This document shows positions 7,224 through 17,993 of a stretch of 64,000 nucleotides of DNA, piece by piece. Below the pieces are notes generated by a model that searched no databases, had not been told where the DNA came from, and worked only from the letters and a program-made list of their open reading frames with translations. The translations under genes were made by a program, and so were the position numbers. This DNA is from Elusimicrobiaceae bacterium (GTDB taxonomy: Bacteria; Elusimicrobiota; Elusimicrobia; Elusimicrobiales; Elusimicrobiaceae): positions 1 to 64,000 of the forward strand of contig JAFXUJ010000003.1 in NCBI GenBank assembly GCA_017525025.1, in the 5' to 3' direction. Position 1 is the first letter of the stretch. Each line of letters starts with the position of its first letter.

Positions 7224-7253
7224 CTTTTTGGGTATTATAAGTGTGGTGTGGCG

Positions 7254-7323
7254 CATAAAAAAATCCCCGTCGGAGTTAAACTCTAACGGGGATTTATGCT
7301 GAAAATTCAAAACTAAAATACGG
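7254..7323 (-). repeat. tRNA-Asp trailer copy A
   Basis: This matches copy B at 67 of 70 positions without gaps (8855-8924). It contains the terminator hairpin (CCCCGT ... ACGGGG, T-run on the minus strand) and ends at CGG, the last bases of the tRNA-Asp 3' end; similarity stops there. It also acts as the terminator of the ankyrin gene. Confidence 0.8.
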
Positions 7324-7349
7324 TGGTTATAGTTTGGGTAGCAAAGTGC

Positions 7350-8708
7350 TTATTCCTTTGCCCCGGCAGCTTTGAGTAGTTCCACAATTTTGGTATTTCC
7401 GGCTTCTTGGGCTAGTTTGATGGCTGTTTTGCCATCATTGTCTTTTGCATTGACATCTGCTCCTGCTTTTAATAACACGCTGACAATTCCTTCGTAATTC
7501 CCGCTTTTTGCCTTAGTTGCGTAAATTAGTGCTGTTGAACCATTATTGTCTTTGGCATTTACATTCGCTCCTGCTTTAATCAAAGTTTGCAAATAGTCTA
7601 TAAACTCTTTTATATTTGGATAGTTTTCATCGCCAAACATCTGAGCTTCATCAGATAGAGTTTCTTTCCTTTCTTCCAATTTCCCTATAAAATCTAACAA
7701 TACGGTTCTACCTTTATTATCCGTTGCATTAATATCCGACCCTGCTTTTAATAATTTTGTTACAACGGAAGTATAATCATTGAATGTATTTGTAATATAC
7801 ATTAGCACAGTTTTTCCGTTTTTATTTGCTGCATTAACATCTGCCCGTGCAGCAATTAACTTTTCCATTACCTTTTTACTCAGATTTTCTTCATAATAGC
7901 CATACGGTGTAGTGTACATTAGGGCCGTCTTTCCATTTTTATCTTTAGCATTTACATTGGCTCCGGCAGCTAACAAGACCTCTACAACTTCTATATTGGC
8001 CTCGGGACAAGCTAACCGTAATGCTTCGTCTTTATCTTCCTGACTTACATTTATACCAGCATTTAGCAACTGTTGCACATTTTCACCAATGCCTAAATGA
8101 CTTGCCTCTAGAAATGCTTCCCTGCCACCCTGCTTTACATCAGCTCCAGCAGAAAGTAATGCTTTTGTAATTTCTGGGGAACCCGCCGAATAGTACAGTG
8201 CGGTATCACCCTTATCATCTGTTTTATTAACATCTGCTCCCGCTTCAATTAATCCATTAACAATAGCAAGAGGACTGCCCGATAAACTCGCTAATATTAA
8301 AGGAGTAGTTCCACAAGAACAGTTCTCATTCACGTTAGCACCTGCTTGTAATAATAGTTTTACAATATTTTCAGAATGTTCATTGACTGCACGACATAAA
8401 GCGGGACGATAGGCAGAACCTTCCACTTCTTGATTCGGGTTTGCCCCTTGTTTGAGAAGTTCCGCTGCTTTTTCTTCATCTCCTGTTACAATAGCAAACG
8501 AAAATGCTTTGTTTAATCTTTCTAAAACAGGGTCTTTTGGCTCTTTATCATAGGAAGTATCTATTGTATTTGTCTTACTTTCCGTAGGCAATTCATTGAT
8601 AGCTGATTTTAGATCATAATTAGAAGGCTTTTCGGCAATATCCGCAGATTCTTTGTTACACGCAGATAAAGCCAGTAAAATGAAACTACCTAATAAAAGT
8701 TTGCGCAT
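7350..8708 (-). CDS. Ankyrin-repeat lipoprotein
   Basis: 452 residues. A lipoprotein signal peptide ends in the lipobox LSAC (Cys16), followed by about 40 low-complexity residues and roughly ten ankyrin repeats (consensus ...GADVNAKDNNGKTAL...), the last ending near the C-terminus. It is predicted to be membrane-anchored outside the cytoplasm and to act in protein binding. It occupies the segment between trailer copies A and B and is the only gene there, so it is likely cargo of an older or decayed integration at tRNA-Asp. A second ankyrin lipoprotein is encoded at 51150-52730. The partner is unknown. Confidence 0.85.
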   Translation of the reverse strand: MRKLLLGSFILLALSACNKESADIAEKPSNYDLKSAINELPTESKTNTIDTSYDKEPKDPVLERLNKAFSFAIVTGDEEKAAELLKQGANPNQEVEGSAYRPALCRAVNEHSENIVKLLLQAGANVNENCSCGTTPLILASLSGSPLAIVNGLIEAGADVNKTDDKGDTALYYSAGSPEITKALLSAGADVKQGGREAFLEASHLGIGENVQQLLNAGINVSQEDKDEALRLACPEANIEVVEVLLAAGANVNAKDKNGKTALMYTTPYGYYEENLSKKVMEKLIAARADVNAANKNGKTVLMYITNTFNDYTSVVTKLLKAGSDINATDNKGRTVLLDFIGKLEERKETLSDEAQMFGDENYPNIKEFIDYLQTLIKAGANVNAKDNNGSTALIYATKAKSGNYEGIVSVLLKAGADVNAKDNDGKTAIKLAQEAGNTKIVELLKAAGAKE

Positions 8709-8780
8709 ACTATTTCTCCTAAAATCTATATATTCTCATTGTAAAACATTTTAACGGCAACTGCGCGACCTCCTACCTAG

Positions 8781-8934
8781 TGTTGTCAGCATAAAAAGAG
8801 AATATTTACCAAAAAGCACGAAAACCTACCAAATTTTCCATGCTAAAAGTCGTTCATAAAAAAATCCCCGTCGGGGTTTAACCCTAACGGGGATTTATGC
8901 TGAAAATTCAAAACTAAAATACGGAGTCGACGAG
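8781..8934 (-). repeat. tRNA-Asp trailer copy B, candidate att site
   Basis: A 154-bp ungapped alignment to copy C (17711-17864) has 23 mismatches (about 85% identity). It ends in CGGAGTCGACGAG, identical to the last 13 nt of the tRNA-Asp gene. The terminator stem shows compensatory changes relative to A and C (GGGTTTAACCC versus GAGTTAAACTC). It marks the distal end of the island. Confidence 0.8.
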
Positions 8935-8947
8935 TGTTCGTCCTGCA

Positions 8948-9102
8948 TAAATTTCCTGATGGAAATTGCGTCCGGAACCGCCCTCGCGGTTTTTGCCTTG
9001 CATCGCTGCGGACTTTGAATCTGGACGCGGCATAAAGCAGTTTATGCCGCTCGATACTCCTATAAATTTGAAAACCCGCACGAGGCGGGTTTTAAATTTA
9101 TA
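8948..9102. other. Hairpin-dense non-coding segment beside att copy B
   Basis: Consecutive inverted repeats: TTTCC/GGAAA; GCGTCCGGA (about 8969) with TCTGGACGC (about 9020) enclosing AACCGC/GCGGTT; a perfect 10-bp stem GCGGCATAAA/TTTATGCCGC (9027-9050); and a long terminator-like palindrome (9061-9102) with core AAAACCCGC/GCGGGTTTT. No convincing gene is present. It could be a folded RNA, a transfer or recombination site, or stacked terminators. Confidence 0.55.
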
Positions 9103-9141
9103 CGGTGCTTTTAGTTTCCCTAGCACTATGCTGATTTTAAA

Positions 9142-9548
9142 ACAGGCTGAAAACAGGCAGAAAATGGCACTTTTTTCTTTCCAAAGCGGCAATAAAGCGG
9201 CAAAAAGTGCTAGTTTTTTTGTTTTGCCAAAGCGGTAATAAAGCGGTAAAAAATGGCAGTTTTTTTGGAACTCAAAGCGGTAGAAAAGCGGTTGAAAATA
9301 GCATTTTTTAATAAATTTGAAGCGGGGAGAAAGCGGCGAGAATGCTAACTCCCAAAGCGACGATAAAGCGAGGAAAATGGCTTTTAAACAGGCGACAAAC
9401 AGGCGAGAATTTGAATTTTTATTCCCTGCTAAACAGGGAAAATACAGGGAAATTATAAAAATATCTTTAAATTTTAAGTATTTCTTATAAAACTGCCTAG
9501 TACAAATACTCAAAATTCCCTAAAATGTAAGCAGAGAACGAGCAGGGA
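9142..9548. repeat. Array of nine paired repeats with constant 11-bp period
   Basis: Each pair is two near-identical short motifs whose starts are exactly 11 bp apart: ACAGGC (9142/9153), AAAGCGGC (9183/9194), AAAGCGGT (9229/9240), AAAGCGGT (9274/9285), AAGCGG (9320/9331), AAAGCGA (9354/9365), AAACAGGCGA (9386/9397), ACAGGGA (9433/9444) and GCAGAGA/GCAGGGA (9531/9542). The motif changes between pairs but is kept within a pair. Several pairs are followed by an AATGGCA-like word and a T-run. Pair-to-pair spacing is mostly 32-47 bp. An open frame on the minus strand reflects the repeats and is not a gene. Confidence 0.8.
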
Positions 9549-9550
9549 AA

Positions 9551-10600
9551 TTATTTGTTTAACTTATACTTTCGCGCTTTTTTGGATGGATCCGCTACTG
9601 CCACAAAACCTTGTCGTACCCATTTTTGGAGTAACTGCCTAGCCGTCCGGCCTGCAAAGTGGAACAGTTCTTCCACATCTTTGGCGGTTATAAATTCGCT
9701 CTTTTCAAACAAAACAAGGGCCTGTTTTTGCCTTGCATCCAGCGCGTTAATCGCTTTGCTTTGGTCCTTTTCGGCACCTTGTAACTGTAAATGCTTTTGC
9801 ACGCTTTGAAACGAATAAAGCATCCCGGACACAAAGAACTCAATCCAGCCTGTTATATCGGCTTCAGCCCGTCCTATGTAATAATTATGAGAGGGCCCCA
9901 CGGCTAGGGCATTGTAATAATCTTGGATATGCTGACAATAATACTCTTCCAAATTGTAAATACCTTTAAGGTCATACCCGCCTTGGTGTAATAGTAATGT
10001 GGTTAAAATGCGCGCCGTCCTTCCGTTCCCGTCATAATATGGGTGTATGGTTACAAATTGGTAATGGGCAATAGCCGCTACTACTGGGATTGGCAAGGTA
10101 TGTGTACTTTCGTTAATCCACTCTACAAGTCCAGTCATCATGGGGCCAACATCTTTGGCCTCTGGGGGCATGTAGATAATGATACCTGTTTGGGCGTCTA
10201 CTACCGAGTTTTGCTCCGTGCGGTACGGAGTAGGAGTATTTCTGCCGATAATTAAGCCATGTAGGAGTTGGATATTAGACTCCGTAACAATATGCTTTTT
10301 AGCCAATACAGCCACTTCATCCAAGGCATTAAAATACCCTTTCACTTCCTTTTCATCCCGTTCCCGGCCTTGAATGGCTTGCCCTTTTAATACCTCACGC
10401 ACTTCCCGCTCTGTTAAGCGGTTGCCCTCAATAACCGTGGAATAGTGCGTGGTGACAATACGGGATGTTTCTTTAAGCCCGGCCAGCACACGCGGCGTTA
10501 ATGGCATATCCTTGACCTGCTCTTTGATTTGGTCTATTTTATAGAGCTTTTCAAGGATAGATTTTGTAATTTGATAGTTTGGATGAAATATTATTGGCAT
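9551..10600 (-). CDS. Fic/Fido family AMP-transferase with C-terminal winged helix
   Basis: 349 residues. An N-terminal helical region carries the inhibitory motif STVIEGN (54-60; Glu58), which marks class II Fic proteins whose own N-terminal helix blocks the active site. The catalytic Fic motif HPYYDGNGRTAR (186-197) is complete. The last 70 residues look like a winged helix (ITAKDVEELFHFAGRTARQLLQKWVRQGFV). Such proteins typically transfer AMP to a target hydroxyl, and the winged helix suggests DNA binding or autoregulation. The promoter carries tandem TATGCCATTA motifs and the paired-repeat array starts right after the stop codon. The target is unknown; a toxin or regulatory role in the island is inferred. 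Confidence 0.9.
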   Translation of the reverse strand: MPIIFHPNYQITKSILEKLYKIDQIKEQVKDMPLTPRVLAGLKETSRIVTTHYSTVIEGNRLTEREVREVLKGQAIQGRERDEKEVKGYFNALDEVAVLAKKHIVTESNIQLLHGLIIGRNTPTPYRTEQNSVVDAQTGIIIYMPPEAKDVGPMMTGLVEWINESTHTLPIPVVAAIAHYQFVTIHPYYDGNGRTARILTTLLLHQGGYDLKGIYNLEEYYCQHIQDYYNALAVGPSHNYYIGRAEADITGWIEFFVSGMLYSFQSVQKHLQLQGAEKDQSKAINALDARQKQALVLFEKSEFITAKDVEELFHFAGRTARQLLQKWVRQGFVAVADPSKKARKYKLNK

Positions 10601-10617
10601 ATATATTGGCGCTCCTA

Positions 10618-10656
10618 TATGCCATTATTATGCCATTAAAATGACGAGGATGTCAA
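10618..10656 (-). promoter_or_regulatory. fic promoter with 11-bp tandem repeat
   Basis: On the minus strand: TTGACA (10656-10651), 18-bp spacer, CATAAT (10632-10627). The plus strand shows TATGCCATTA twice (10618-10627 and 10629-10638), again with an 11-bp period, covering the -10 box. It looks like an operator. A Shine-Dalgarno AGGAG follows before the ATG. Confidence 0.65.
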
Positions 10657-10751
10657 GGGGTTGTTAGTAAGTTGTTATAAGTGCGTTTGCATAAGTGGAC
10701 AGGTTGTGATTTGCTACAAACGTCGAAGAAAAACAAAATTAGCACTCATGC

Positions 10752-10780
10752 TTGACTTTTGCCAAAAAATATGCTATTAT
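10752..10780 (+). promoter_or_regulatory. Strong promoter for structured RNA
   Basis: TTGACT (10752-10757), exactly 17 bp, TATTAT (10775-10780). The predicted start is near 10787, just before two large hairpins. Confidence 0.7.
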
Positions 10781-10786
10781 AGGGAG

Positions 10787-10906
10787 AATAAAATCCCTTT
10801 GGTAGTAGATCTCAGTGGAATGGAAGCTACTACCAAAGGGAACAAGACAAAAGGTATGCTATGGAGTTCAAAGCACAACCTTTCTGCTCTTAGTATACCT
10901 TTTTGT
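10787..10906 (+). ncRNA. Candidate structured RNA or leader upstream of unknown gene
   Basis: It starts at a consensus promoter. Hairpin 1: perfect 14-bp stem CCCTTTGGTAGTAG (10795-10808) with CTACTACCAAAGGG (10827-10840). Hairpin 2: about 15 bp, ACAAAAGGTATGCTA (10847-10861) with TAGTATACCTTTTTGT (10891-10906), a 29-nt loop, ending in a T-run like a terminator. Transcription might stop here as a roughly 120-nt RNA or read on into the gene at 10968. No plausible protein is encoded in it. Confidence 0.6.
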
Positions 10907-10967
10907 TGAAATGGGTGTCAAGTTGTTTTTGCCCCAAAATTCATACAAAGAGAGGTGATCAACAAAA

Positions 10968-11825
10968 ATGATTACTAAGAGTAAAGTAAGAAATGTAAAG
11001 CAGTATCTTGTTCCCGGCCTGAAATCCTTCCGGCTTGTTTCCCCAGAATTAACCCCCGAAGTCAAAGCCAAATTACGAATTGATGGCTATTCAGATGGTG
11101 ATAAATTTTTGCCGCTGGCCATAGGTCCAGTTAGTAAATTTAATGCGGATGGGGGTTGGTTTCCTTTGAAAGATCAGCCCAAGGAAAATCGGTACGTAAT
11201 GACTGCCCATTGGCAATGGAAAGATTGGCATGGAAAACATTATGAAGCTGAAAAAGATGTTTATAAAGACTGTTACCAACGCCGGCGAATTTTACCGCCA
11301 TCCGAAGAATTGATTTTAGTAAACAACAGGGCCTACAGCGATGTATTAAATGAAGCAGATGAAGAGCATATCAAACATGTTATCAACTTAATGTTAGAGT
11401 TATTTGGCGGGTGCGATTTCGTTCAACCTGATTTTACTGTCCCCGTAGAAATTAAACAAAAGAATTTTGAGTTACTTCCACCGGGGGAATATCCTTTTGA
11501 ACGGATTAAGCGCTTAATAGAGGATGACCCACGGAAGAAAAGGGAGATTTGTCTCCTTGAAGAGCGTTTTCAGTTCTTTCAGAATGCCAATCCTACAACG
11601 ATTGTTATCGGTTGCGGGGGATATCGTGGTTATGTCGGTTTTCAGTATAAACAGTATTTGATACTCGATAATAAATGGTACGGAAATGCCATTTATGTAT
11701 TCCCTGCAAATACGGAGTTAATACTTTCACTTACAAAAAAGGAGGTATTAGACGGCCATTTGCACATAACTCGCATACCCCATACACAGGACTGGCAAAA
11801 AAATGTTGAGCCGTATTTGAAATAA
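10968..11825 (+). CDS. Unknown cytoplasmic island protein
   Basis: 285 residues, soluble, with no signal peptide. A good ribosome binding site (GAGAGGTGATC) precedes the ATG. Notable segments are GGWFPLKDQPKENRYVM near residue 60, a Trp-rich AHWQWKDWHGKHYE, and a Gly/aromatic stretch CGGYRGYVGFQYKQYLILDN (about 220-240) followed by GNAIYVF. The C-terminal part looks like a compact alpha/beta domain. It lies downstream of the structured RNA and ahead of the HEPN-type gene, and a 15-bp inverted repeat follows its stop. I do not recognise the family. The context suggests an accessory or defence role; this is inference. Confidence 0.65.
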   Translation: MITKSKVRNVKQYLVPGLKSFRLVSPELTPEVKAKLRIDGYSDGDKFLPLAIGPVSKFNADGGWFPLKDQPKENRYVMTAHWQWKDWHGKHYEAEKDVYKDCYQRRRILPPSEELILVNNRAYSDVLNEADEEHIKHVINLMLELFGGCDFVQPDFTVPVEIKQKNFELLPPGEYPFERIKRLIEDDPRKKREICLLEERFQFFQNANPTTIVIGCGGYRGYVGFQYKQYLILDNKWYGNAIYVFPANTELILSLTKKEVLDGHLHITRIPHTQDWQKNVEPYLK

Positions 11826-11833
11826 AGCCATTG

Positions 11834-11877
11834 TTGTGGCAGATGGTTGCTTAACAGAGGTTAACCATCTGCCACAA
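11834..11877. repeat. Perfect 15-bp inverted repeat
   Basis: TTGTGGCAGATGGTT (11834-11848) and its exact complement (11863-11877) with a 14-nt spacer. No T-run follows. It could be a terminator, an RNA stem or an operator between two island genes. Confidence 0.65.
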
Positions 11878-11983
11878 CGTCAGGTTTAGCAGTCTGAAGT
11901 TGGTTTAATTAAACATTGCATAATTAAAAACGAATTTAAGGAGTTGAAGGATGTTCTAATCTTCATCAAATAATGGTATAGAT

Positions 11984-12964
11984 ATGAGAAAAAAACGTGA
12001 AGTATTTTCTATCAAAGAGATACTATTGACAAAATCAAGAGAGGCGGCTTTGTCCGCAATTCAAATTTATAATAATCCATTAATAAAATTTAAAACGGAA
12101 ACCTTTATAGTGTTGATGATTATTGCTTGGACCTATTTACTACATGCATTTTACAGGAGCAAGAAAATTGACTACCGGTATGTGGATAAGAAAAAAAGCA
12201 CAGAACAAAGAAAGGTATATTGTAAAATTGAGGGTCGTTATAAGTTGTGGGAACTTTCAACTTGTCTGGAACAAGAGGAATCTCCTGTTAGTTCAGCGTG
12301 CAAACAAAACCTACAATTTCTAATTGGTCTCCGAAATAGGATTGAACATCAAATGGTCCCAATTATTGAAGATATAATAAGTGCGCGACTACATGCTTGT
12401 GGGTTGAACTATAATAAATATATTGTCTCTTTGTTCAATCCTAAATATGCTATTGATAAGAATTTAATGTTTTCTTTACAATTTAATAAAATAAGCGAAA
12501 ATCAACGAAAGCTCACGGATAAGTACACCTTGCCAACTGTGATTAAACAATATATTCAAGACTTCGACAATAGCTTGTCTCCTAATGAATATGAAAGTGA
12601 AGAATTTGCAGTTCGTTATTTTTTTGTTCGAAAAACAAATAACCATAAGGGAACAGCAGATCAAGTTATTGAATTCATTCCTGCTGATTCGGAATTAACT
12701 AAAGACATTAACAAACAATATGTTGTGATAAAAGAAACGGAGAGGAAGAAATTTTTACCTGGGCAGATTGTGCAAATAATGCAAGATAAAGGCTTTAAAA
12801 AATTCAAAATGCATCATTTTGTAGACTTCTGGCATATGCGCGATGCAAAAAATCCCAAATACCATTATGGGGAAAAAATAGCAAAAACCACTTGGTATTG
12901 GTATGAAAAATGGGTAAAAGAAGTGGAAGATTATTGTTTGAAACATGAAAAGGATTTTAAATAA
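11984..12964 (+). CDS. DUF3644/HEPN-type protein
   Basis: 326 residues, soluble. The N-terminus (EAALSAIQIYNNPLIKFKTE, then TFIVLMIIAWTYLLHAF) matches the pattern of DUF3644 proteins. LRNRIEH (Arg117, His122) fits the R-x4-H signature of HEPN ribonucleases. The C-terminal region (FLPGQIVQIMQDKGFKKFKMHHFVDFWHMRDAKNP) resembles a small helical DNA- or RNA-binding module. No strong Shine-Dalgarno sequence is visible before the ATG. HEPN proteins commonly act as RNase toxins in defence or toxin-antitoxin loci; the gene 49 nt downstream is the obvious partner. Family assignment is from pattern memory, not a search. Confidence 0.7.
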   Translation: MRKKREVFSIKEILLTKSREAALSAIQIYNNPLIKFKTETFIVLMIIAWTYLLHAFYRSKKIDYRYVDKKKSTEQRKVYCKIEGRYKLWELSTCLEQEESPVSSACKQNLQFLIGLRNRIEHQMVPIIEDIISARLHACGLNYNKYIVSLFNPKYAIDKNLMFSLQFNKISENQRKLTDKYTLPTVIKQYIQDFDNSLSPNEYESEEFAVRYFFVRKTNNHKGTADQVIEFIPADSELTKDINKQYVVIKETERKKFLPGQIVQIMQDKGFKKFKMHHFVDFWHMRDAKNPKYHYGEKIAKTTWYWYEKWVKEVEDYCLKHEKDFK

Positions 12965-13012
12965 ATACATGCCTTGTTCAACCAATGAATCTCTGTTCTA
13001 TTAATAAGCTAT

Positions 13013-13924
13013 ATGAATCACAATTCACATGGAAGCCAAAATATATTGACAACATTTCACGAAGATATTCGTGCCTTCATAATAGAACAAACCAAAACTA
13101 TTGCGTTGAGCCAGAAATCAATTAAATTCATCAATACAGCGAAAATTGATGATCTTTTATCTCAATTTATTTACTTTCGACAACGATATCCTATTGGAAA
13201 ATATAAGGTGTATATTCCAGCGAGTATGTATCTAACCTCTAAATATGCTAGGTATAAAAACCAAATTCTACATATTAAGATGTTACTGGAAACTGGAAAA
13301 GGTATAGAGAATTATCTGCATAACGATATTACTGATTTTTTATTTCATGACAATCTGCTAAAAGATTGGGGGGTTGTACATATACATTTACGGCCAACAG
13401 GGAGAAGAAAACACCGAGATAATGACCTTCTTTACGCAATACAAATCTCAGATTATATTCTATTTTTGAAAGTTGATACTCATGATTGTTTCTTGAAAAA
13501 AGAATTGTTGGAAATTTTATATCAAAATTATCCTGAATTTTTTGGATTTTCGTCCATTTCTGGAGGCCATTTCAAGGAAGAGGAGATTGAAAATTTACGC
13601 AACAACAATATTGGATATGCTTTAGATCTTGGTGGAAAAAGCTTTTACGGGGGAATAAATCGTTTAATTCCATGGAAAGGTTGCGTGCAAATCTTGGAAA
13701 ATTTGCGGAATCTGTCTATTTTGCTAGATACTAACTCCCAGCAGATTAAACACAAAATAGAACAAATTGGTTATACAGGAAAATTAGATTTCCATTTGGG
13801 TATAAATTTACACAAGAAAGAAGTTTACGTATATGAAAAAAATAGTTGTGTCGAAATCAGATTTTCCGATGCTGATATTATGAAAAAATTGACGAATTGC
13901 TTTGTAAATTTACATTTGTGTTAA
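13013..13924 (+). CDS. Unknown partner of the HEPN-type gene
   Basis: 303 residues, soluble and AT-rich. A helical N-terminal region (1-105) precedes a compact segment DWGVVHIHLRP (118-128; His123, His125), a basic stretch GRRKHRDNDLLYAI and DYILFLKVDTHD (147-158). The order HxHL - Arg-rich - LL - DTHD recalls small nuclease or toxin-like folds found in defence islands, but I cannot name the family. It is 48 nt downstream of the DUF3644-type gene on the same strand, consistent with a two-gene unit. No clear ribosome binding site is seen. Its role as toxin, antitoxin or effector is open. Confidence 0.6.
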   Translation: MNHNSHGSQNILTTFHEDIRAFIIEQTKTIALSQKSIKFINTAKIDDLLSQFIYFRQRYPIGKYKVYIPASMYLTSKYARYKNQILHIKMLLETGKGIENYLHNDITDFLFHDNLLKDWGVVHIHLRPTGRRKHRDNDLLYAIQISDYILFLKVDTHDCFLKKELLEILYQNYPEFFGFSSISGGHFKEEEIENLRNNNIGYALDLGGKSFYGGINRLIPWKGCVQILENLRNLSILLDTNSQQIKHKIEQIGYTGKLDFHLGINLHKKEVYVYEKNSCVEIRFSDADIMKKLTNCFVNLHLC

Positions 13925-14154
13925 TATTACTTCCTTTTTATTTTTATAAAAGAAATGATGGCGATGAAACTCCTTAAAATTCGAAGATTCTTTGTGCCAC
14001 CATCATAGGAGATAGCGTGCCCTGCCTTGATAAGACCTTCTCCTAGACTGTGCCCATTAACCTTAACATCACAAAGGGATCAAAGGAATTAATTACGTCT
14101 ACAATTACGCGATGGGAGTTTGCTATTTTAAGAACAATTCCGATAAATGCTTTA

Positions 14155-14163
14155 TGCTATAAT
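14155..14163 (+). promoter_or_regulatory. Extended -10 promoter
   Basis: TGCTATAAT (TGn plus TATAAT, 14155-14163), about 57 nt before the Sel1 lipoprotein gene, with no clear -35. The 295-bp gap from 13925 also holds an ATGATGG/CCATCAT inverted repeat (about 13955 and 14002), probably the terminator of the preceding gene. Confidence 0.55.
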
Positions 14164-14219
14164 TTAGAGGGTGATATTGCTATGTTGTCGCACCTAAATT
14201 AAGAGGAGATGTTTGAAAC

Positions 14220-15506
14220 ATGAAGAAATGGTTAGTTCTATCTATATTTTCAATATTTTTAATTGGTTGTTCTACAACACAACGTTATTCGTTTCAGGTA
14301 TCCGCGCAGTCAGTTTCGCCAAATAAACATCATTGTAGGGTATATTACACTAATAAAGATGAAAAGACAATCGACGGAAAAAATTATAGCGCTCAGTTAG
14401 AAGACCTTCTGAGGAGCAAAGGCCTGCAGGTTACAAGCAATGAAGAAAAAACGGATTGTTCGATACTCGTTGCACATTCTACCGAGTATGGGAAAGAACA
14501 ACAAATTGGTCATACTTGGGGGCAAACCGGAGTAAATAGCTCAACCTCTTGGACTAACGCACATATTTCTTCGTCTGGACACGGGCAGGCTTCCACATAT
14601 ACCACTTATACTCCTACATATGGAATTACTGGGACTTACACATACGATGTAGCTAAGTCGTACACGACCTTCTCTATGAGCGCTAAAGATTCGGATACGA
14701 AAGATGAGATGTGGAATATCAGCGTATTTTATGCAGGGAATGTTAATGAGAAATTTGTAAATTTATTCCCTATATTCAAATGTATTATGGGACACTTTAT
14801 GTTCAGAAATTTTGACACTTACGTTGAGTTGACCAAGAAGGATATAGAGAATATTTACAACGGTCAATGTGCCCTTGTTCAATGGAAGGATTTCAAAGAG
14901 CTGGAACAAATGGCTCGTAAGGGAGACGCTGAAGCCCAATTTGTTTTGAGTGTCTGGTATTTAACTGGAGATGGTGTTGTACGAGATGAAACTAAGGCAT
15001 TATATTGGGTTACAAAAGCAGCAGAACAGGGACATAAAAGAGCGCAATTTTCGCTAGGTAGAGTATATGAGAGAGGCATATCTGTCCCTGTTGATTATCA
15101 GAAGGCATTTTTCTGGTATTCAAAAGCAGCAGATCAACAGGAACCTGATGGACAAAACGCGTTGGCAAATATGTATTATACGGGAAAAGGTATCGCTCAA
15201 AATCTACCAAAAGCTTTTACGTTATATTCGGCTGCGGCATTGCAGGGAAACCCATCGGCCGAAGCTAAATTGGCGTGTTATGATACCAATATAAAAACAA
15301 TGGAAGAGCACTTTAAGAGATGTTTATCGATGGCTGAGCAGGGAAATGTAAAAGCTCAATATGCTGTTTTTGATATGTATTGGAACGGATATGGTATTCC
15401 GCAAAATAGGGATGTAGCTCAGTCGTGGTTAAAACGGGCCGTTTCTTTAGATCCTAAGTATGAAGATACTCTCTATATGGTGCAGAATATGGCACAAACA
15501 AAGTAG
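14220..15506 (+). CDS. Sel1-repeat lipoprotein
   Basis: 428 residues. The lipoprotein signal peptide ends in LIGC (Cys17). An N-terminal domain (about 25-215) with Thr/Ser/Tyr-rich stretches (TSWTNAHISSSGHGQ, then TYTTYTPTYGITGTYTYD) resembles small outer-membrane lipoprotein domains that precede repeat regions. Sel1-like repeats follow (about 222-420; motifs AEAQFVLSVWYLTGDGV, AQFSLGRVYERG, GQNALANMYYTGKGI, AQYAVFDMYWNGYGI). A clear ribosome binding site (GAGGAG) lies upstream. It is predicted to be anchored in the envelope and to bind proteins. It is likely island cargo rather than part of the integration machinery. Confidence 0.8.
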   Translation: MKKWLVLSIFSIFLIGCSTTQRYSFQVSAQSVSPNKHHCRVYYTNKDEKTIDGKNYSAQLEDLLRSKGLQVTSNEEKTDCSILVAHSTEYGKEQQIGHTWGQTGVNSSTSWTNAHISSSGHGQASTYTTYTPTYGITGTYTYDVAKSYTTFSMSAKDSDTKDEMWNISVFYAGNVNEKFVNLFPIFKCIMGHFMFRNFDTYVELTKKDIENIYNGQCALVQWKDFKELEQMARKGDAEAQFVLSVWYLTGDGVVRDETKALYWVTKAAEQGHKRAQFSLGRVYERGISVPVDYQKAFFWYSKAADQQEPDGQNALANMYYTGKGIAQNLPKAFTLYSAAALQGNPSAEAKLACYDTNIKTMEEHFKRCLSMAEQGNVKAQYAVFDMYWNGYGIPQNRDVAQSWLKRAVSLDPKYEDTLYMVQNMAQTK

Positions 15507-15639
15507 CTAATAATACAAAACAATTATAAAATACATTTGTTTATAATTTTCGTTGTGCGGAAAGATTCTTGTAATGTGTTTTCCTGCAGGGGAAGAGAAA
15601 GAATATAAGCGAATGATATCGCAAGGGTATTAATTCTAC

Positions 15640-15669
15640 TTGACTTCTAGGCCTAGAAGAAGCGGTAAT
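15640..15669 (+). promoter_or_regulatory. Recombinase operon promoter with palindromic operator
   Basis: TTGACT (15640-15645), then about 18 bp to GGTAAT. A perfect 16-bp palindrome CTTCTAGGCCTAGAAG (15644-15659) fills the spacer, which is what a repressor operator looks like. The Shine-Dalgarno TAGGAGAG precedes the DUF2924 gene. Confidence 0.6.
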
Positions 15670-15686
15670 GTGTATAGGAGAGAAAT

Positions 15687-16070
15687 ATGACCGATTACAC
15701 ACAATTAACCGCACGGGAATTACGCTTAAAATGGTCCGAAATTATAGGCCTGCCTATACCGCCAATCGGGCGAAGTCTAATTATCAAATACCTGTTATGG
15801 TATGAACAAGCCAAGCGTGAGAAGCTTTCTCCACTTGGCTTTTTCTATGAAGTAAAACAAGCCGCCCACAATGCGAGTACACGGCCCAAAGCTACATTAG
15901 AAATCGGTTCCAAACTTATTCGGTCGTATTGCGGGGTTAAGTATGAAGTAGAAATTATTCCACAGGGCTATTTATACAAACATAAAACCTATAAAAGTTT
16001 ATCTGGAGTAGCCAAAGCCATTACGGGCAAGAGTTGGAATGGGAATGTATTCTTTGGAGTAAAAAAATGA
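15687..16070 (+). CDS. DUF2924 protein, recombinase partner
   Basis: 127 residues. The pattern LRLKWSEIIGLPIPPIGRSLIIKYLLWYEQ ... IGSKLIRSYCGVKYEVEIIPQGYLYKHKTYKSLSGVAKAITGKSWNGNVFFG (quoted in parts) matches DUF2924, a small family found directly upstream of large serine recombinases in prophages and islands. It overlaps the recombinase gene by 4 nt (ATGA), indicating translational coupling. Its biochemical role is unproven; it may assist or direct recombination. Confidence 0.85.
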   Translation: MTDYTQLTARELRLKWSEIIGLPIPPIGRSLIIKYLLWYEQAKREKLSPLGFFYEVKQAAHNASTRPKATLEIGSKLIRSYCGVKYEVEIIPQGYLYKHKTYKSLSGVAKAITGKSWNGNVFFGVKK

Positions 16071-17683
16071 GTGATAAGAAAATACGTTGCGCTATCTATA
16101 CCCGCAAGTCAACCGAAGAAGGGTTAGAGCAGGAGTTTAACAGTCTGCAGGCCCAACGGGAAGCGTGTGAGGCCTATATTAAAAGCCAAAAGCATGAACA
16201 TTGGCAACTTTTATCTGCCGAATACGATGACGGTGGATATTCTGGTGGTAATATGGAACGCCCGGCCTTAAAACGCCTACTATTGGATGTTCAAAACGGA
16301 CTTATAGATATTATCGTAGTATACAAGATAGACCGCTTAACCCGTAGTTTAATGGACTTTAGCAAAATTGTGGAGATATTAGACAAGCATAATGCCTCGT
16401 TTGTATCTATAACACAGCACTTTAATACCACTACCAGTATGGGTAGATTAACACTTAATATGTTACTCTCATTTGCCCAGTTTGAGCGTGAAGTAACAGG
16501 AGAGCGCATCCGGGATAAGATTAGTGCCAGTAAAAAGAAAGGTATGTGGATGGGTGGCAAACCACCATTAGGATATTACCGCAAAGATAAAAAGATATAT
16601 CCGGATGAAGAAAAATCCATACTTATCAATAATATCTTTAAGAAATACGTAGAACTAAAAAGCACTACACTCCTAAAAGAGTGGTTAAATAAACAAGGGC
16701 ATAATATATCCGTAGGGAACTTAAACTGTATCCTACGTAATAAAGCATATATCGGCCTAGTTGGGCATAAGGGGACATGGTACCCGGGCGAACACCAAGG
16801 GATAATCTCCCAAGAGTTATTTGAGCAAGTCCAAACAGTGATGGCGGATAACCGTATCAACCGTCAACATTATGATCCAAGCAAGAGTCTCTTAGCCGGC
16901 AAGTTGTATGACGATAAAGATAATGCCATGAGCCCGAGTTGGAGTACAGGCAGTGGCGGTAAGAAATATCGCTATTATGTAAGCCAAGCTATTATCCGCA
17001 AGGAGCCAGGCAAAGTGGGGAAAGTCAGTAAAGTTTCACTCCCAAAGTTGGAGCAGTTTATAGATAATTGGTTTAGTGTATTTTTGAAAGACAAGACAAA
17101 AATATATCCGTACATGCAGCAATTTGGGGTAAGCAAGCAAAAGGAAATTATCAAACAACTATCATCCTATCTAATAACCCGAAATATAGAAAAAGAACTA
17201 ATCAAACGTGTGAAATTAAATCCAAACAAGATAGAAGTCACGTTATATCAAGAACAAGTGACTGAATTATTAAATGCCATTTATGAAGACCGGGAAATGC
17301 GCCAACTCAAACCCGAAGAATTGCAACAAGAGAATCCCTACACGGAGCCGTATCATATCGGTACAATAGCCAACGGAGAAAAGATAATTGTGGGGCGGTT
17401 TGTAGAACCAAGCAAAAGGCCTAATACTGAACTTATCAAAATCTTAAATCAAGCATATGCTTGGCACCAAGATATATTAGACGGTAAGACTACCCAAGAA
17501 ATAGCCAATAGAGAGAAGGTATGTGTGCAGTATGTCCGCAGGATCCTTAATTTAAGTTTTTTATCGCCCAAAATTGTACGCTCCATCCTAAACGGCACTC
17601 AACCCGCCGATTGCACGCTCAAAAAATTGCTCGCTATCAAAGAATCTGATTGGCACAAGCAAGAACAAATTCTCATTAAATAA
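16067..17683 (+). CDS. Large serine recombinase / integrase
   Basis: 538 residues from the ATG at 16067, chosen because it overlaps the DUF2924 stop. The N-terminal resolvase domain carries YTRKSTEEG (catalytic Ser in the KST motif) and QRE, then IVVYKIDRLTRSL and GRLTLNMLLSFAQFERE. A Recombinase domain follows (about 155-270; GYYRKDKKIYPDEEK, LNCILRNKAYIG). The C-terminal half lacks an obvious Cys4 zinc ribbon, but ends with a helix-turn-helix-like TTQEIANREKVCVQYVRRILNLSFLSP. It is placed directly beside repeat C and the tRNA-Asp 3' end, so it most likely integrates and excises the island. tRNA 3' ends are usually targets of tyrosine integrases, so this pairing is less common. Confidence 0.93.
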   Translation: MSDKKIRCAIYTRKSTEEGLEQEFNSLQAQREACEAYIKSQKHEHWQLLSAEYDDGGYSGGNMERPALKRLLLDVQNGLIDIIVVYKIDRLTRSLMDFSKIVEILDKHNASFVSITQHFNTTTSMGRLTLNMLLSFAQFEREVTGERIRDKISASKKKGMWMGGKPPLGYYRKDKKIYPDEEKSILINNIFKKYVELKSTTLLKEWLNKQGHNISVGNLNCILRNKAYIGLVGHKGTWYPGEHQGIISQELFEQVQTVMADNRINRQHYDPSKSLLAGKLYDDKDNAMSPSWSTGSGGKKYRYYVSQAIIRKEPGKVGKVSKVSLPKLEQFIDNWFSVFLKDKTKIYPYMQQFGVSKQKEIIKQLSSYLITRNIEKELIKRVKLNPNKIEVTLYQEQVTELLNAIYEDREMRQLKPEELQQENPYTEPYHIGTIANGEKIIVGRFVEPSKRPNTELIKILNQAYAWHQDILDGKTTQEIANREKVCVQYVRRILNLSFLSPKIVRSILNGTQPADCTLKKLLAIKESDWHKQEQILIK

Positions 17684-17710
17684 ATCTTCAGTGAACGACT
17701 TCCTGCTCGG

Positions 17711-17864
17711 TCCGGTCAGCATAAAATGAGAATATTTACTCAAAAGCTAAAAAAACCACCAAATTTTCCATGTTATGAGTGGTGCATAAAAAAATCCCCG
17801 TCGGAGTTAAACTCGAACGGGGATTTATGCTATAAATTCAAAACTAGAATACGGAGTCGACGAG
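17711..17864 (-). repeat. tRNA-Asp trailer copy C, candidate att site
   Basis: The native-position copy of the trailer, with terminator hairpin (about 17786-17830), directly following the tRNA 3' end. It aligns without gaps to copy B over 154 bp. The last 13 bp lie inside the tRNA gene. Confidence 0.8.
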
Positions 17865-17926
17865 ATTCGAACTCGCGGTCTCTGCCTTGACAGGGCAGCG
17901 TGTTAACCAGGCTACACCACGACTCC
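17852..17926 (-). tRNA. tRNA-Asp (GTC)
   Basis: A 75-nt cloverleaf without encoded CCA: acceptor GGAGTCG/CGACTCC, D arm GTGT/ACAC, anticodon arm CTGCC-CTGTCAA-GGCAG (anticodon GTC), T arm GCGAG-TTCGAAT-CTCGT, discriminator G. It is the integration target of the adjacent island. Confidence 0.95.
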
Positions 17927-17993
17927 AAACAAAATCTTTTGTACTTATATTGTAGCTTAAAACGGAGATGTGCGTCAACCGTTTACAAGAAGT

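What the first reader, a model, noticed from the sequence alone, without database searches (positions are those of the whole stretch)
11984..13924. Candidate two-gene defence or toxin system: DUF3644/HEPN-type protein plus unknown partner
The first protein has the DUF3644-like N-terminus and an R-x4-H motif (Arg117/His122). The second has a compact HIHL...Arg-rich...DTHD core. They are adjacent, both AT-rich, and lie in an integrated island with fic and a structured RNA, the usual place for defence modules. I do not recognise this pair as a described system.
Basis: partly seen in the sequence, partly recalled or inferred. Interest (0 to 1): 0.62.

Follow-up and report, generated by a model that had tools for sequence, protein, structure and literature searches.

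The report
Two unrelated single-gene defence candidates, adjacent
Two neighbouring genes on a small mobile DNA island each belong to a different, already catalogued family of stand-alone anti-virus proteins (probable RNA-cutting toxins), and they look like chance cargo neighbours rather than a new two-gene defence system.

Summary
The two ORFs are real, but they are not a new two-gene system. ORF1 (11984-12964) is a DUF3644 protein with a HEPN-fold N-terminus and an invariant Arg117-x4-His122. It matches the PADLOC candidate PDC-S19 at E 1e-129. ORF2 (13013-13924) is a divergent PD-T4-7 homologue (PADLOC 2e-15), a family reported in an E. coli screen as toxin-like and abortive. Its predicted core (residues 62-179) resembles RelE/HigB/YafQ-type mRNA-cleaving toxins and keeps the family's conserved Asp, His and Arg residues.

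None of 29 PD-T4-7 loci carries DUF3644 nearby, and none of about 22 DUF3644 loci carries PD-T4-7. Among 341 genomes of the phylum, both occur only here. ORF2 has no recurrent neighbour. ORF1's recurrent neighbour elsewhere is type I restriction.

Both genes are cargo of an ~8.9-kb tRNA-Asp island with Fic, DUF2924 and a serine recombinase. The same core recurs in sister genomes with other cargo in the same slot. Most likely these are two independent RNase-type, infection-triggered effectors (activity inferred): new members of known kinds, of low to moderate interest.

The parts
11984..12964 (+). DUF3644 protein (326 aa): HEPN-fold N-terminus (about residues 7-154, R117-x4-H122), low-confidence middle, C-terminal alpha/beta domain (about 255-325)
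   Evidence: Pfam 9.3e-55; PADLOC PDC-S19 1.4e-129; AF2 model with HEPN structures at the top, Z 9.1-7.2; invariant R117, E121, H122
13013..13924 (+). Divergent PD-T4-7 homologue (303 aa) with predicted RelE-like core (residues 62-179)
   Evidence: PADLOC PD-T4-7 2.2e-15 and 1.5e-10; conserved core in 24 aligned sequences; AF2 pLDDT 81.5, RelE/HigB/YafQ/Cami1 top matches, Z up to 5.8
11944..15637 (+). Cargo cassette that differs from the sister island (DUF3644, PD-T4-7, Sel1-repeat lipoprotein)
   Evidence: DNA homology to L100 stops at 11943 and resumes at 15638; L101, L102, L112 and L114 resume at 15638-15639; junction alignments
14220..15506 (+). Sel1-repeat lipoprotein-like protein in the same cassette (428 aa)
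   Evidence: Pfam Sel1 1.9e-38
15687..16070 (+). DUF2924 protein, overlaps the start of the recombinase gene
   Evidence: Pfam 1.6e-23; 80-83% identical in sister islands
16034..17683 (+). Large serine recombinase of the island (start may be 16061)
   Evidence: Pfam Resolvase 2e-38 and Recombinase 3.6e-12; 87-91% identical in four sister islands with an unbroken gene
10968..11825 (+). Unknown 285-aa protein of the island
   Evidence: No Pfam or PADLOC match; 91% identical in one sister island only
9551..10600 (-). Fic protein of the island
   Evidence: Pfam Fic 2.8e-17; PADLOC SoFic 3.4e-51; 93-94% identical in sister islands
8766..8934 (.). Left direct repeat (att-like), ends in a 3' tRNA-Asp fragment
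   Evidence: 169 nt, 83% identical to 17696-17864
17696..17864 (.). Right direct repeat, runs into the 3' end of tRNA-Asp (17851-17927, minus strand)
11833..11878 (+). Hairpin with 16-bp perfect stem after the 285-aa gene, nearly identical in the sister island
   Evidence: I5

Best explanation
The finding is two independent single-gene, infection-triggered effectors that lie next to each other as cargo of a mobile tRNA-Asp island. ORF1 is a DUF3644 protein. Its HEPN domain, probably as a dimer, would cleave RNA with Arg117 and His122 once its C-terminal part senses a trigger; some relatives sit inside type I restriction operons, where they may guard the restriction enzyme. ORF2 is a PD-T4-7-type protein. 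Its central RelE-like domain would cleave mRNA, probably on the ribosome, when its flanking regions are released by a phage cue, stopping translation and aborting infection. Shown here: family membership by profile, conserved residues, predicted folds, the island structure, and the lack of linkage elsewhere. Inferred: RNA cleavage, triggers, dimerisation and phage protection.
For: Profile matches: DUF3644 9.3e-55, PDC-S19 1.4e-129 and PD-T4-7 2.2e-15. The ORF1 model's best PDB matches are HEPN proteins (2hsb Z 9.1, MntA-HepT toxins Z 8.8-8.5, Csm6 Z 8.1). The ORF2 model's best matches are HigB1, HP0894, YoeB, YafQ, RelE and Cami1 (Z 5.8-4.7, residues about 62-179). No linkage: 0 of 29 PD-T4-7 loci and 0 of about 22 DUF3644 loci carry the other gene; DUF3644 is in 13 and PD-T4-7 in 2 of 341 phylum genomes, both only in this one; 1 of 23 other PD-T4-7 genomes has DUF3644 anywhere. 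ORF2 homologues have no recurrent neighbour, apart from two unlike resolvases. DUF3644 recurs with hsdS/hsdR. Five same-genus sister islands keep the recombinase (in one of them broken) but carry other cargo, including Dsr1-like SIR2, PDC-M43-like and IetA-like AAA genes. PMC9519451 reports PD-T4-7 as toxin-like and abortive.
Against: ORF2 is a distant family member (15-23% identity to the others) and has lost the glycine-rich stretch around residue 213-223 that most members have, so its function may have drifted. The RelE resemblance is weak in absolute terms (Foldseek E 0.1; Z below 6) and profile searches of sequence do not find it. Both genes point the same way, 48 nt apart, with no promoter-like site between them in the scan, so co-expression is possible. 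No activity data exist for either protein.
Confidence: 0.78

Rival explanations
1. The two genes form a rare, lineage-specific two-gene defence system in which the HEPN and RelE-like proteins cooperate or control each other.
For: Same strand, 48-nt gap, same unusually low GC (0.319 and 0.311), inside one exchanged cassette.
Against: Neither gene is found with the other anywhere else searched; both families otherwise stand alone or have other partners. Neither protein looks like an antitoxin.
Confidence: 0.08
2. A toxin-antitoxin pair in which ORF2 neutralises the HEPN toxin ORF1, or the reverse.
For: HEPN toxins of the HepT type have adjacent antitoxins (e.g. MntA, whose partner toxin is a top structural match); the gene order would fit.
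Against: HepT antitoxins are MNT nucleotidyltransferases, and ORF2 has no such domain and looks like a toxin itself. Neither family has a constant partner. No type III-like RNA repeat array lies beside ORF1.
Confidence: 0.05
3. ORF1 is a restriction-associated guard that works in trans with the genome's only detected type I restriction system; ORF2 is unrelated cargo.
For: Its closest relative found (58% identical, in G291) and three same-genus relatives lie between hsdS and hsdR; this genome has one HsdR gene on another contig.
Against: Here it is not in a restriction operon. Plasmid and phage relatives mostly lack restriction neighbours, so restriction is not obligatory.
Confidence: 0.15
4. 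The genes are degraded remnants without function.
For: ORF2 is divergent and lacks a conserved glycine-rich stretch; the cassette's left joint falls at the ribosome-binding site of a gene present in the sister island.
Against: Both frames are intact, full length, and keep every invariant core residue.
Confidence: 0.07

Closest known systems
PD-T4-7 (Vassallo et al. 2022, PMC9519451)
   Same: ORF2 matches both PADLOC PD-T4-7 profiles over most of their length (2.2e-15, 1.5e-10), shares the D-D-W-G-x2-H-x-H / R / H core, and like its homologues has no constant partner.
   Different: 15-23% identity to other members; glycine-rich stretch missing; it lies beside a DUF3644 gene; its host is an Elusimicrobiota bacterium.
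PDC-S19 / DUF3644 (Pfam PF12358; HEPN superfamily, Anantharaman et al. 2013, PMC3710099)
   Same: Whole-length match to one PDC-S19 model (1.4e-129), the DUF3644 domain, HEPN fold and R-x4-H. PMC3710099 lists DUF3644 as a HEPN family.
   Different: Several Elusimicrobiota relatives are embedded in type I restriction operons; this one is not.
RelE-superfamily mRNA interferases (RelE, HigB, YoeB, YafQ) and the CRISPR-linked Cami1
   Same: Predicted fold order beta-alpha-alpha-beta-beta-beta-alpha at residues 62-172 and structural matches. Conserved His on the second strand and after the fourth are where YafQ-like toxins carry active-site His (own knowledge).
   Different: About 300 aa with extra N- and C-terminal regions; no sequence-level match; no antitoxin gene.
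PrrC in a type Ic restriction operon (own knowledge)
   Same: A HEPN RNase encoded inside a type I restriction operon, as DUF3644 is in some relatives.
   Different: DUF3644 has no ABC-ATPase domain, and the copy here is outside any restriction operon.

Membership tests
DUF3644 / PDC-S19 | Significant match to the family profile over its length | tested here: met
   PF12358 9.3e-55, profile 2-183 of 183; PDC-S19 1.4e-129, profile 3-322 of 325
HEPN superfamily | R-x4-6-H motif | tested here: met
   R117-x4-H122 invariant in A2 and A5
HEPN superfamily | Four-helix HEPN fold | tested here: met
   AF2 helices 10-30, 37-59, 104-120, 129-150; HEPN-type structures fill the top rows, Z 9.1-7.2. pLDDT of the whole model is only 73.9
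HEPN superfamily | RNase activity | not testable with these tools
   Needs an assay
PD-T4-7 | Match to the family profile | tested here: met
   2.2e-15 and 1.5e-10, weaker than three other members tested (best profile 1e-31 to 1e-43)
PD-T4-7 | Conserved core residues | tested here: met
   D113, D118, W119, G120, H123, H125 and P174 invariant, R135 and H157 at least 90%, in 24 sequences
PD-T4-7 | Glycine-rich stretch near residue 213-223 found in most members | tested here: not met
   Window protein has a gap there; not known to be essential, and not a published defining feature
PD-T4-7 | Abortive defence against phage | not testable with these tools
   Reported for the E. coli system in PMC9519451
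RelE superfamily | RelE fold | tested here: inconclusive
   Nearly all best rows are RelE-like, but Z is at most 5.8 and Foldseek E at best 0.1
RelE superfamily | Ribosome-dependent mRNA cleavage | not testable with these tools
   Needs an assay
Two-gene DUF3644 + ORF2 system | Adjacency conserved across genomes | tested here: not met
Protein toxin-antitoxin pair | Constant partner gene | tested here: not met
   No constant partner of either family
Type III TenpIN toxin | Profile score above cut-off and adjacent RNA repeat array | tested here: not met
   23.8 bits against a cut-off of 90; no array near ORF1

The most novel reading that the evidence does not exclude
A HEPN RNase and a RelE-like mRNase form one functional double-toxin unit in this lineage, for example two layers triggered by the same phage cue, or one toxin restrained by the other.
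Probability: 0.06. Interest if true: 0.55.

Novelty: new member of a known kind. Interest (0 to 1): 0.24.

Why it matters
It removes a proposed new two-gene system from the list and replaces it with two filed genes. Three modest points remain useful. ORF2 extends the PD-T4-7 family in Elusimicrobiota, and its model suggests how that poorly understood family may work (a RelE-like mRNase inside a larger single protein). DUF3644 repeatedly sits between hsdS and hsdR in this phylum, which suggests a restriction guard. A tRNA-Asp serine-recombinase island in this genus swaps defence-like cargo at fixed joints, which gives a place to look for further systems.

Tried and rejected
1) ORF1+ORF2 as a conserved pair: rejected on neighbourhood data. 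2) Toxin-antitoxin with MNT antitoxin: ORF2 has no such domain. 3) Type III TA: the TenpIN match is far below cut-off and no RNA repeats were found. 4) Rfam RNA in the island: none apart from the tRNA. 5) Relatives of ORF2 in phages: none; in plasmids only two weak ones. 6) Single-sequence scan of genomes with ORF2: none; the alignment scan then gave 23 loci. 7) PDB sequence search with both proteins or their profiles: nothing useful. 8) Searches in other phyla centred on loci were not accepted by the tool, which needs genome handles; the search of the 23 PD-T4-7 genomes was used instead. 9) The C-terminal parts of both models had no usable structural match; they were not predicted alone.

Full report
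Observation. Both ORFs exist at the stated coordinates, on the + strand, 326 and 303 codons, 48 nt apart. Dinucleotide Markov shuffles of the stretch never gave an open frame above 163 codons in 500 trials. Both are AT-rich (GC 0.319 and 0.311 against 0.446 for the window).

ORF1. It is a DUF3644 protein (PF12358, 9.3e-55) and matches one PADLOC model of the candidate PDC-S19 over its full length (1.4e-129). DUF3644 was placed in the HEPN superfamily by Anantharaman et al. (PMC3710099). Arg117, Glu121 and His122 are invariant in the alignments. The AF2 model (pLDDT 73.9, only 7 sequences) has a four-helix N-terminus. HEPN toxins, archaeal HEPN proteins and Csm6 fill the top rows (Z 9.1 to about 7). 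Relatives occur on plasmids (29 records) and in Streptococcus satellite phages. In several Elusimicrobiota genomes they lie between hsdS and hsdR. The closest relative found (58% identical) is one of those.

ORF2. It has no Pfam match but matches both PADLOC PD-T4-7 models (2.2e-15, 1.5e-10). In an alignment of 24 sequences, the other 23 from a wide range of bacterial phyla and viral contigs, D113, D118-W119-G120, H123, H125 and P174 are invariant, and R135 and H157 nearly so. The AF2 model is fair (pLDDT 81.5, pTM 0.78). Its residues 62-172 follow the order beta-alpha-alpha-beta-beta-beta-alpha. The structural matches are led by HigB1, HP0894, YoeB, YafQ, RelE, HigB2 and the CRISPR-associated Cami1 (Z 5.8 to 4.7; Foldseek best E 0.1, probability 0.96). 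These scores are weak one by one, but nearly all top rows are one superfamily. The E. coli paper lists PD-T4-7 among toxin-like, abortive systems. It also describes one system as RelE-like joined to a tail-sheath-like region. By elimination this may be PD-T4-7, and one homologue here gave a very weak Phage_sheath_1 match (0.053). I treat that identification as inference.

Is it a system? Profiles of both families were run over every locus fetched by then. None of 29 PD-T4-7 loci (L007, L008, L033-L036, L044-L066; one element counted twice) carries DUF3644, and none of about 22 DUF3644 loci carries PD-T4-7. Flanks differ: 4-6 kb for most, 1.5 kb for some genome-search loci, and some are cut by contig ends. 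In 341 Elusimicrobiota genomes DUF3644 is found in 13 (10 above cut-off) and PD-T4-7 in 2; only this genome has both. Of 23 genomes that carry the other PD-T4-7 genes, one has DUF3644 anywhere, not within the fetched neighbourhood. That 4% is close to the 3-4% background of DUF3644 in the phylum. Among 68 neighbours of PD-T4-7 genes no family recurs except two dissimilar resolvases. The pair is therefore best read as chance cargo neighbours.

Island. A 169-nt direct repeat (8766-8934 and 17696-17864, 83% identical) ends in the 3' part of tRNA-Asp (17851-17927) and bounds about 8.9 kb with Fic, the 285-aa protein, DUF3644, PD-T4-7, a Sel1 protein, DUF2924 and a serine recombinase. Same-genus genomes show the same tRNA-Asp and murB, with no recombinase found there in some and sister islands in others. 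The sister island L100 is 85% identical over 9382-11943 and 84% over 15638-17670, but different in between. L101, L102, L112 and L114 share the right joint at 15638-15639. The left joint falls just after an AAGGAG ribosome-binding site. Cargo of the sister islands includes a Dsr1-like SIR2 gene, PDC-M43-like genes, an IetA-like AAA protein and a kinase. Viral contig L035, identical in this gene to Afipia locus L052, joins PD-T4-7 to a DUF2924/serine-recombinase module and a gene read by eye as Fic.

Mechanism and status. Shown: family membership, conserved residues, predicted folds, island anatomy, absence of linkage. Inferred from the families: HEPN RNA cleavage by ORF1; RelE-like mRNA cleavage by ORF2; triggering by infection; abortive outcome. 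Not shown: expression, toxicity, protection.

Verdict. Two new members of known kinds sit side by side in a variable cargo slot. Interest is low to moderate, mostly for the RelE-like model of PD-T4-7 and for the hsd-linked DUF3644.

Noticed in passing
window 9127-9480: About eight units of ~45 nt beside the 3' end of fic, each with a pair of near-identical ~8-nt words 11 nt apart (e.g. AAAGCGGT AAT AAAGCGGT, CAGGC..CAGGC). The word changes between units while the two halves of a unit mostly agree. Unit number differs in sister islands L099, L100 and L112. No Rfam match.
   Followed up: partly
window 7248-8924: A third partial copy of the tRNA-Asp terminator repeat (7248-7323) lies left of the left att copy (8849-8924), with an ankyrin-repeat lipoprotein gene (7350-8708) between: looks like serial insertion at the same tRNA.
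   Followed up: partly
window 8766-17864; L099-L102, L112, L114: tRNA-Asp hot spot of a DUF2924/serine-recombinase island with a fixed right joint at 15638 and exchangeable, often defence-like cargo in the same genus.
   Followed up: yes
window 15638-15687: Conserved block before DUF2924 starts with TTGACTTCTAGGCCTAGAAGAAG, holding a perfect palindrome TTCTAGGCCTAGAA: possible operator of the recombinase operon.
   Followed up: no
window 10968-11825: 285-aa protein without any Pfam, PADLOC, PHROG or NCBIfam match of note; found in one of 65 other same-genus genomes, 91% identical.
   Followed up: partly
L114:1275-5235: SIR2 protein (Dsr1 profile 1.1e-44, SIR2_2 5.9e-14) followed by an overlapping 1009-aa gene without any match, in the same tRNA-Asp island of a sister genome: a possible two-gene SIR2 system.
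   Followed up: no
window 11984-12964, residues 107-204: Weak match of DUF3644 to NCBIfam TenpIN type III toxin (4.3e-5, 23.8 bits, cut-off 90), over the stretch with the HEPN motif. Chance, or a sign of how that model was built.
   Followed up: no
L027, L028, L029, L030: DUF3644 genes lie next to hsdS and hsdR in Elusimicrobiota (in L027 with a further 226-aa gene): a recurrent restriction-embedded HEPN arrangement.
   Followed up: partly
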